This document shows, piece after piece, positions 32,826 to 34,217 of a stretch of 34,217 bases of DNA (positions within the stretch are counted from its first letter, which is position 1; every line of letters starts with the position of its first letter). The notes beneath the pieces were generated by a model. That model had not been told where the DNA came from, did not search any database, and saw only the letters and a list, made by a program, of their open reading frames with translations. The position numbers were made by a program, and so were the translations under genes. The stretch spans positions 1 through 34,217 of the forward strand of contig JBDIWM010000023.1 of NCBI GenBank assembly GCA_039638595.1, read 5' to 3'. Source of the stretch: Atribacterota bacterium. Its GTDB lineage: Bacteria > Atribacterota > Atribacteria > Atribacterales > Caldatribacteriaceae.

Positions 32826-33974
32826 TTAGTTGCTCTGAGCTTCTCTGTACATGGCCACAATGTTTTCCGGAGGAACATCAGCCTGCACATCGTGCACCGC
32901 ACAGAGGACATACCCATCGGGACCGAGTTCCTGAATACGCCGGCGCACCTCCTGACGCACTTCTTCTTCTTTCCCTCGAGGCAAAACAAAGGTGGTATCC
33001 ACTGCACCCCAGAAACACAGGTCTTTGCCAAACTTTTCTTTCAACACCCTGGTGTCCATCCCCTGGGCCGAAACCTGCACCGGATTCAGAATATCAACCC
33101 CAATCTCAATCAAATCGGGAATAAAGGAAACAATGCTCCCACAGGAATGGTACAGAAGCTTCGCCTGAGGAACGAGCTTTTTGAGGTTCGCAAAATATTC
33201 CTTCTGGAAGGGTTTCACCATTTCCCGGTACACCTTTGGACTCATGATCACACTCTCTGCCGTAGCTAAGTCGTCTCCCACAAAAATGACATCCAAATAC
33301 TCTCCCACTTCCTGCAAGAAAAGACCATAGCGTTTGAGCTGATAGTTGTACATCCCCTCCATCAGGGCCAGAACGAACTCACGGTTCGTCATAAGGTCCA
33401 CCAGGAAATTCTCAAAACCCCGCAGGTACCAGCAGGGTTCAAAAATCCCAGTATCAATCATATCCCCTACCAGAAGATACTTTCCTTCTTCCTTTAACCG
33501 CTTCGCCCGCTCCCGAACTCCGGTTAAATCCATACTCCGTGCTGGATCTGGCCAGGGATACTCCCTCAACTCCTCTACCGATACCCCCGCCAGGGGGTGT
33601 TCCACCATATCGTAATAAAGACCCCCTTCTGGCATATGGTATTTGATTCCAAATTCGTTATAGTAGGTCCATTCGTCAACGATTCGCTTTTGCCAAACAG
33701 GCTGGGGATGAATCCCCCGGGTATCAATCCCCAGAATTTCCAAAACCTCTTCATCGATAAAGACAATCTGGAAATTCTCCATCATGAGACGGGTTTCCTT
33801 TTCCACCCCCAGGAATCGCTTTAGGTTCTCATATGCCACCCTGGTCATGGTGGTACAATTCGTGGTCCCCAGATCAACGGGTACCCGATCTGGAGTTTCA
33901 TGATTAAGGGCCTTCATCGCCCTTTCTCTTCCCGTCACCCCCGCCACACCCCTTTCAGCTCTCAAATCGTCCAT
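32826..33974 (-). CDS. Uroporphyrinogen-decarboxylase-like protein (methyltransferase-type)
   Basis: 382 residues from the ATG at 33974. The sequence resembles the MtaA/CmuA/URO-D superfamily: GRERAMKALNHETPDRVPVD (~15-34), GVDILNPVQVSAQGMD (~290-305), LCFWGAVDTTFVLPRG (~315-330), VPPENIVAMYREAQ at the end. LLYHSCGSIVSF carries His-x-Cys, the zinc-ligand region of the methylcobamide:coenzyme M methyltransferase branch, so a corrinoid or methyl-transfer role is more likely than haem synthesis; arginines that bind uroporphyrinogen were not seen at the N-terminus. Start choice: TAAAAT (33980-33975) abuts the ATG, so a transcript from that box would begin inside the frame. A GTG at 33938, giving VTGRERAM, matches family N-termini better. 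First gene of the large Rnf operon. Confidence 0.8.
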   Translation of the reverse strand: MDDLRAERGVAGVTGRERAMKALNHETPDRVPVDLGTTNCTTMTRVAYENLKRFLGVEKETRLMMENFQIVFIDEEVLEILGIDTRGIHPQPVWQKRIVDEWTYYNEFGIKYHMPEGGLYYDMVEHPLAGVSVEELREYPWPDPARSMDLTGVRERAKRLKEEGKYLLVGDMIDTGIFEPCWYLRGFENFLVDLMTNREFVLALMEGMYNYQLKRYGLFLQEVGEYLDVIFVGDDLATAESVIMSPKVYREMVKPFQKEYFANLKKLVPQAKLLYHSCGSIVSFIPDLIEIGVDILNPVQVSAQGMDTRVLKEKFGKDLCFWGAVDTTFVLPRGKEEEVRQEVRRRIQELGPDGYVLCAVHDVQADVPPENIVAMYREAQSN

Positions 33975-34019: not shown

Positions 34020-34111
34020 CCCCACCGGAAATTATCACCATCTGAACAGGAAGTCAAGATGTCTTATGTTCCTCATCCAGGAGAACCAACATCAAACTCC
34101 TTCCAACTTGC

Positions 34112-34217
34112 CCCTAAATGTATTAATCGAGGAGCCTGCCCTCGAATGGATTAATCGAGGAGCCTGCCCCTGCATGTCTTAAGCAGGGGTCATTCCGGCA
34201 ATCTTTAAGCCGGAATC
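34112..34217. repeat. Array of ~28-nt stem-loop units with TTAA-ended loops
   Basis: Four consecutive units have 9-nt loops starting at 34118, 34146, 34174 and 34200 (spacing 28, 28, 26). Loops are ATGTATTAA, ATGGATTAA, ATGTCTTAA and AATCTTTAA. Arms differ but pair in units 2-4: CCTCGA/TCGAGG (34140-34145 with 34155-34160), CCCCTGC/GCAGGGG (34167-34173 with 34183-34189) and ATTCCGGC/GCCGGAAT (34192-34199 with 34209-34216). Unit 1 shares the right arm of unit 2, but its left arm is mostly unpaired. It is non-coding and runs past the window edge. The last unit, GTCATTCCGGC...GCCGGAATC, resembles widespread palindromic REP/MITE-type repeats. Full extent and function are unknown. Confidence 0.8.

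What the first reader, a model, noticed from the sequence alone, without database searches (positions are those of the whole stretch)
34112..34217. Stem-loop array with conserved loops and compensating stems
Units 2, 3 and 4 have entirely different arm sequences (CTCGA, CCCCTGC, ATTCCGGC), yet each pairs perfectly with its partner across a 9-nt loop that ends in TTAA in all four units. Changing arms that keep pairing while loop and spacing stay fixed (28, 28, 26 nt) means the hairpin shape, not the sequence, is being kept. CRISPR repeats have identical units, and simple tandem repeats do not covary. The last unit resembles the GTCATTCC...GGAATC palindromes spread through many genomes, so this may be a MITE or REP cluster, a subterminal hairpin set at a transposon end, or a string of structured RNAs or protein sites. 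This is the least explained structure in the window.
Basis: seen in the sequence. Interest (0 to 1): 0.75.

Follow-up and report, generated by a model that had tools for sequence, protein, structure and literature searches.

The report
REP palindrome cluster at contig end
The hairpin array is real. It is the cut-off edge of a cluster of REP elements, short palindromes that spread through bacterial genomes, here an unusual 9-base-loop form in a heat-loving Atribacterota bacterium whose genome shows no gene for the transposase normally linked to such repeats.

Summary
Four 9-nt loops ending in TTAA start at 34118, 34146, 34174 and 34200 (spacing 28, 28, 26), and units 2-4 pair perfectly (6, 7, 8 bp); unit 1 does not pair. 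Chance would give about 0.2 such hairpins in the window.

34217 is a contig end. The same 105 bp recurs at 96% identity elsewhere in the genome, which holds at least 32 units in about 9 clusters; related Atribacterota carry up to 134. Units read CGTC/GTC-ATTCC(NGN)-9-nt loop-complement-C. They occur singly, as tag-outward dimers mostly 18-30 nt apart, and as 27-28-nt head-to-tail runs. This matches the published CGTC-tagged REP superfamily (PMC3733652), including its lack of an associated transposase. It differs in the conserved asymmetric 9-nt loop (published mostly 4-5 nt) and in common head-to-tail arrays (published: negligible). Arm covariation is strong across 111 distinct units. G-U pairs are rare and units lie in both orientations, so I favour DNA-hairpin maintenance over a structured RNA.

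CRISPR is excluded by anatomy; RAYT and IS110 enzymes were sought in this genome and not found. Unexpected lead: HepT toxin genes sit beside the clusters (1 of 1 here, 3 of 3 in a relative).

The parts
34111..34132 (+). Unit 1, degenerate: left arm CCCCTAA, loop ATGTATTAA (34118-34126), right arm TCGAGG. Arms do not pair; looks like a chimera of two unit types
   Evidence: sequence; the paralogue on C62 has a different, also mismatched left arm (GTCATTCCTGA) in front of the same kind of right arm
34140..34160 (+). Unit 2: CCTCGA - ATGGATTAA - TCGAGG, 6-bp stem, 9-nt loop, tag replaced by GCCTG
   Evidence: model hit 34135-34163, 35.2 bits
34167..34189 (+). Unit 3: CCCCTGC - ATGTCTTAA - GCAGGGG, 7-bp stem, 9-nt loop
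34189..34217 (+). Unit 4: canonical tagged REP, GTC + ATTCCGGC - AATCTTTAA - GCCGGAAT + C, 8-bp stem. In a related cluster on C8 the identical unit is half of a tag-outward dimer; here the contig ends
   Evidence: (38.5 bits)
32826..33974 (-). Nearest gene, URO-D family (PF01208); its start is about 140 bp from the array. Context only, no sign that it belongs to the element

Best explanation
It is the edge of a mosaic cluster of CGTC-tagged REPs (repetitive extragenic palindromes), in a form with a conserved oriented 9-nt loop. Shown: units of this type are dispersed and clustered in this genome and in a patchy set of related genomes, in both orientations, as tag-outward dimers and as 27-28-nt head-to-tail runs that usually lead into a tagged REP. 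Inferred: the tagged REPs are non-autonomous elements that spread as single-stranded DNA hairpins through an enzyme not identified here. The head-to-tail run grew by slippage or unequal recombination between units, which also made chimeric units such as unit 1. Arms stay complementary because hairpin recognition demands it, because replication template switching copies one arm onto the other, or both.
For: Own-genome copies of the window array: C62 at 96% over 105 bp, C8 at 77%. At least 32 units on 6 contigs. 20 of 41 related genomes carry the unit, with 134, 134, 103 and 68 copies in the richest, and none found in four congeners of the genome with 68. Tag CGTC or TGTC, 8-bp stem starting AT, tail after the final C of CT or CCA type: the published description of CGTC REPs (PMC3733652). 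Orientation classes: 40 tag-outward pairs within 60 bp, most 18-30 nt apart. A contig from the viral collection has one of these 9-nt-loop units in a dimer with a 4-nt-loop palindrome that fits the CGTC-1 description (L135). Covariation: 96.6% of cells paired against 78.1% in shuffles, 170 two-sided changes against 46.8, and nothing comparable when the partner is slid. Paralogous array edges carry mismatched left arms.
Against: The published loop sizes are mostly 4-5 nt and published head-to-tail dimers are negligible, so this is not a textbook copy. No enzyme has been tied to it. Mobility itself is not demonstrated: relatives with the neighbouring gene show no REP near it, but non-coding flanks were too diverged to align across an empty site.
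Confidence: 0.8

Rival explanations
1. Arms co-vary only because DNA polymerase template switching (quasipalindrome correction) copies one arm onto the other; the hairpin has no selected role. The array is then a mutationally homogenised satellite derived from REPs.
For: Two-sided changes (170 cells) far outnumber one-sided standard-pair changes (15 cells); G-U pairs are about 2% of standard pairs. Template switching is published as able to fix the pairing of existing stems (PMC8794818). Chimeric units with unpaired arms exist as possible starting material.
Against: It does not explain the conserved tag or loop ends (loop position 9 was an A in all 134 distinct units, though A was required by the parser; position 1 is A in 114; position 6 is T in 106), nor dispersal to many places. 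Probably a contributor rather than the whole story.
Confidence: 0.4
2. String of structured RNAs: the units are kept as RNA hairpins (terminators, mRNA stabilisers or protein-binding RNAs).
For: RNA fold z = -3.4. Published REPs are often downstream of genes and probably transcribed (PMC3733652).
Against: Units alternate in orientation within one cluster. G-U pairs are rare. No Rfam family matches in the window. Here the array lies on the upstream side of the only gene next to it. Incidental effects on transcripts remain possible.
Confidence: 0.1
3. MITE or subterminal hairpin set of an insertion sequence whose transposase sits nearby or elsewhere in the genome.
For: Tag-outward dimers resemble REPINs. 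Some relatives carry Y1 transposases (25 of 41).
Against: No PF01797 match in this genome (97% complete) nor in REP-rich G001, G003, G004 and G006. No IS110 match in G000, G001, G003, G006 or G012. Twenty proteins, most of them neighbours of clusters, include no transposase. Other transposase families were not searched genome-wide.
Confidence: 0.1
4. CRISPR-like array.
For: Regular 26-28-nt spacing.
Against: The variable parts are palindromic arms, not unique spacers. Units occur inverted and dispersed. No direct repeat is identical across all units.
Confidence: 0.01

Closest known systems
CGTC-tagged REPs, families 1-4 (Di Nocera et al. 2013, PMC3733652), including Neisseria dRS3 and Rickettsia RPE-4 and RPE-6
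   Same: CGTC/TGTC tag, 8-bp stem starting AT, short tail after the stem, many stem and loop subtypes, tag-outward dimers prominent, heterodimers common, large mosaic clusters as in Neisseria, no associated transposase.
   Different: 9-nt asymmetric loop (A....T..A) instead of mostly 4-5 nt; head-to-tail 27-28-nt arrays with a GCCTG junction are common; phylum Atribacterota is not on the published list of five phyla.
REPINs and GTAG REPs mobilised by RAYT (TnpAREP)
   Same: Tagged palindrome, dimers in opposite orientation. Loop sequence can be read by the enzyme: T and A positions of a TTTA loop were needed for Marinomonas TnpAREP (PMC8266576).
   Different: Tag CGTC, not GTAG; no RAYT-type gene in this genome or in four REP-rich relatives.
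BIME / NIME mosaic clusters
   Same: Several palindromes in mixed orientation plus other short repeats in one intergenic stretch.
   Different: Here the cluster edge often has a head-to-tail run of untagged hairpins, and other stretches hold tandem half units (tag + left arm, 24-27 nt period).

Membership tests
CGTC-tagged REP superfamily | Unpaired CGTC (or TGTC/CCTC) at one end | tested here: met
   132 of 189 parsed units carry GTC, mostly preceded by C or T. In the window only unit 4 has it, as GGTC; units 1-3 carry derived junctions.
CGTC-tagged REP superfamily | Stem of 8-9 bp starting with A-T, T-A pairs | tested here: met
   8 pairs; A-U and U-A commonest at the first two. Units 2 and 3 of the window depart from this.
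CGTC-tagged REP superfamily | Loop of 4-5 nt (exceptions published for a few species) | tested here: not met
   9-nt loop in nearly all units, a few 10 nt. The paper itself records loops of other length in Bradyrhizobium, K. olearia and M. prima, so this makes it a variant rather than excluding it.
CGTC-tagged REP superfamily | Mostly tag-outward dimers, head-to-tail negligible | tested here: inconclusive
   40 tag-outward pairs against 26 tag-inward and 55 same-direction pairs within 60 bp; same-direction pairs are common because of the tandem runs. Loci were chosen for being REP-rich.
CGTC-tagged REP superfamily | No associated transposase | tested here: met
   No PF01797 or PF01548 match in the own genome; no transposase among scanned neighbours.
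RAYT-mobilised REPIN | GTAG tag and a RAYT gene in the genome | tested here: not met
   Tag is CGTC-type; no PF01797 match.
CRISPR array | Identical repeats with unique spacers | tested here: not met
   Palindromic units with variable arms, also dispersed and inverted.
Rfam RNA families | Match above gathering score | tested here: not met
   Only hit in 55.6 kb was a c-di-GMP-I riboswitch on another contig.

The most novel reading that the evidence does not exclude
A CGTC-REP lineage with an enzyme-read 9-nt loop spreads without RAYT, through an unrecognised single-strand DNA-processing enzyme, and its clusters act as landing sites for toxin-antitoxin genes (HepT/MNT, VapC).
Probability: 0.15. 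Interest if true: 0.65.

Novelty: new variant of a known kind. Interest (0 to 1): 0.35.

Why it matters
The enzyme behind CGTC REPs has been an open question since 2013. This clade offers a sharp contrast: one genus with a genome holding 68 copies and four congeners with none found, plus REP-rich genomes without RAYT or IS110 matches. Comparing their gene content could name or exclude candidate enzymes. It also warns that strong arm covariation in a repeat does not by itself prove selection for a structured RNA.

Tried and rejected
Exact pattern GATTCCGGC..GCCGGAATC gave nothing because the canonical unit lacks the leading G. Rfam gave no match in the window. RAYT and IS110 did not track REP copy number. 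Alignment of the window flank to 17 relatives stopped at the gene, so no empty site could be shown. The model in 18 genomes of other phyla found nothing at E 1e-4, without a positive control; viral-collection contigs do carry the unit. A literature search for HEPN/MNT with palindromic repeats returned seven papers; none was opened and no title concerns REPs. Avoidance of identical arms in dimers: 0 of 40, expected 4.5 by reshuffling dimer members (P 0.0055) but 2.3 by drawing from the pool (P 0.08), so only suggestive.

Full report
What is there. The last 107 bases of the window hold four 9-nt loops ending in TTAA, at 34118, 34146, 34174 and 34200. Units 2, 3 and 4 have different arms that pair perfectly over 6, 7 and 8 bp; unit 1 does not pair. 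A Markov model of the window expects 0.19 such hairpins on one strand, and the array folds better than shuffles as DNA (z -3.6) and RNA (z -3.4).

Where it is. The window is a complete contig, C23 of an 83-contig assembly of 2.13 Mb, so the array is cut by the contig end. The neighbouring gene's relatives place the organism with Candidatus Caldatribacterium and other Atribacterota. The neighbour is a URO-D-family gene reading away from the array, its start about 140 bp off.

Copies. The 105 bp at the contig end recur at 96% on contig C62 and at 77% on C8. A covariance model of 20 units finds 32 in this genome, on six contigs in about nine clusters, 20 of 41 related genomes positive, up to 134 copies, and none found in four congeners of a genome with 68. 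A wider phylum sample agrees. Relatives that share the neighbouring gene have no unit near it.

Anatomy. The common unit is C/T-GTC, ATTCC plus three bases, a 9-nt loop with A at both ends and T-rich second half, the complementary arm, then C. Units lie in both orientations: tag-outward pairs mostly 18-30 nt apart, tag-inward pairs, and head-to-tail runs one to three bases apart whose tag is replaced by GCCTG or similar and which usually run into a tagged unit. The window shows such a run (units 1-3) ending in a tagged unit (4). The same run type, including the CTCGA arm type, occurs in a different genus (G003). Tandem half units (tag plus left arm, 24-27 nt) occur in several clusters.

Covariation. 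On 111 distinct units 96.6% of cells pair, against 78.1% after shuffling partners; six of eight pairs change on both sides; sliding the partner by one column drops pairing to 52% or less. The alignment was fitted to the structure and the units are related by descent, so the size of the effect is inflated, but its existence is not in doubt: perfect arms are visible in raw sequence. Two-sided changes (170) dwarf one-sided standard-pair changes (15). That, with mixed orientation, argues for a DNA-level process over selection on an RNA, and fits template switching that repairs one arm from the other (PMC8794818). Chimeric edge units with unpaired arms on both C23 and C62 fit recombination between unit types.

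What it is. Tag, stem, tail, subtypes, dimers, clusters and lack of a transposase match the CGTC-tagged REPs of Di Nocera et al. (PMC3733652). A contig in the viral collection joins one 9-nt-loop unit to a 4-nt-loop palindrome of CGTC-1 type in one dimer. Loop length and head-to-tail arrays depart from the published picture, and Atribacterota are not on its list. I file it as a variant of that superfamily.

How it may work. Shown: dispersal, patchiness, dimers, tandem runs, covariation. Inferred: spread as single-stranded hairpins by an unidentified enzyme, tandem growth by slippage or unequal recombination, arm repair by template switching. RAYT is an unlikely current agent: no PF01797 match in this genome or in REP-rich G001, G003, G004 and G006. 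IS110 is absent from most of them too. Other enzyme families were not searched.

A side finding. The only HepT gene of this genome lies between two REP clusters on C8, and all three in G003 lie within 150 bp of a cluster. This was noticed after looking, not predicted, and the figure assumes random gene placement. In G004, G006, G012 and G001 some HepT genes are near units and many are not, and small PIN genes show a similar tendency (4 of about 11 within 500 bp) while long PIN-domain proteins show none (0 of 6). It may mean only that both collect in variable regions.

Noticed in passing
L010 (C8) 21-1620; L109 (G003:C25); L113 (G003:C26): HepT/MNT toxin-antitoxin genes sit beside REP clusters: 1 of 1 HepT in this genome, 3 of 3 in G003; weaker in four other genomes; small PIN genes show some of the same tendency.
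   Followed up: partly
L009, L010, L115: Tandem half units (tag + left arm, no right arm) with 24-27 nt period inside REP clusters.
   Followed up: partly
REP dimers in 22 loci: None of 40 tag-outward dimers has identical arms in both halves; depletion is suggestive only (P 0.0055 or 0.08 by two nulls).
   Followed up: partly
L132-L136 (viral collection): Five contigs labelled viral carry the same 9-nt-loop unit; on L135 it forms a dimer with a 4-nt-loop unit. Hosts not determined.
   Followed up: partly
L010 (C8) 2878-2961, - strand: c-di-GMP-I riboswitch, 78.1 bits.
   Followed up: no
contig ends C8, C23, C62, C75; G003 C16, C24, C25, C26, C31, C46: REP clusters lie near contig ends, so they probably break short-read assemblies of this group and are undercounted.
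   Followed up: no
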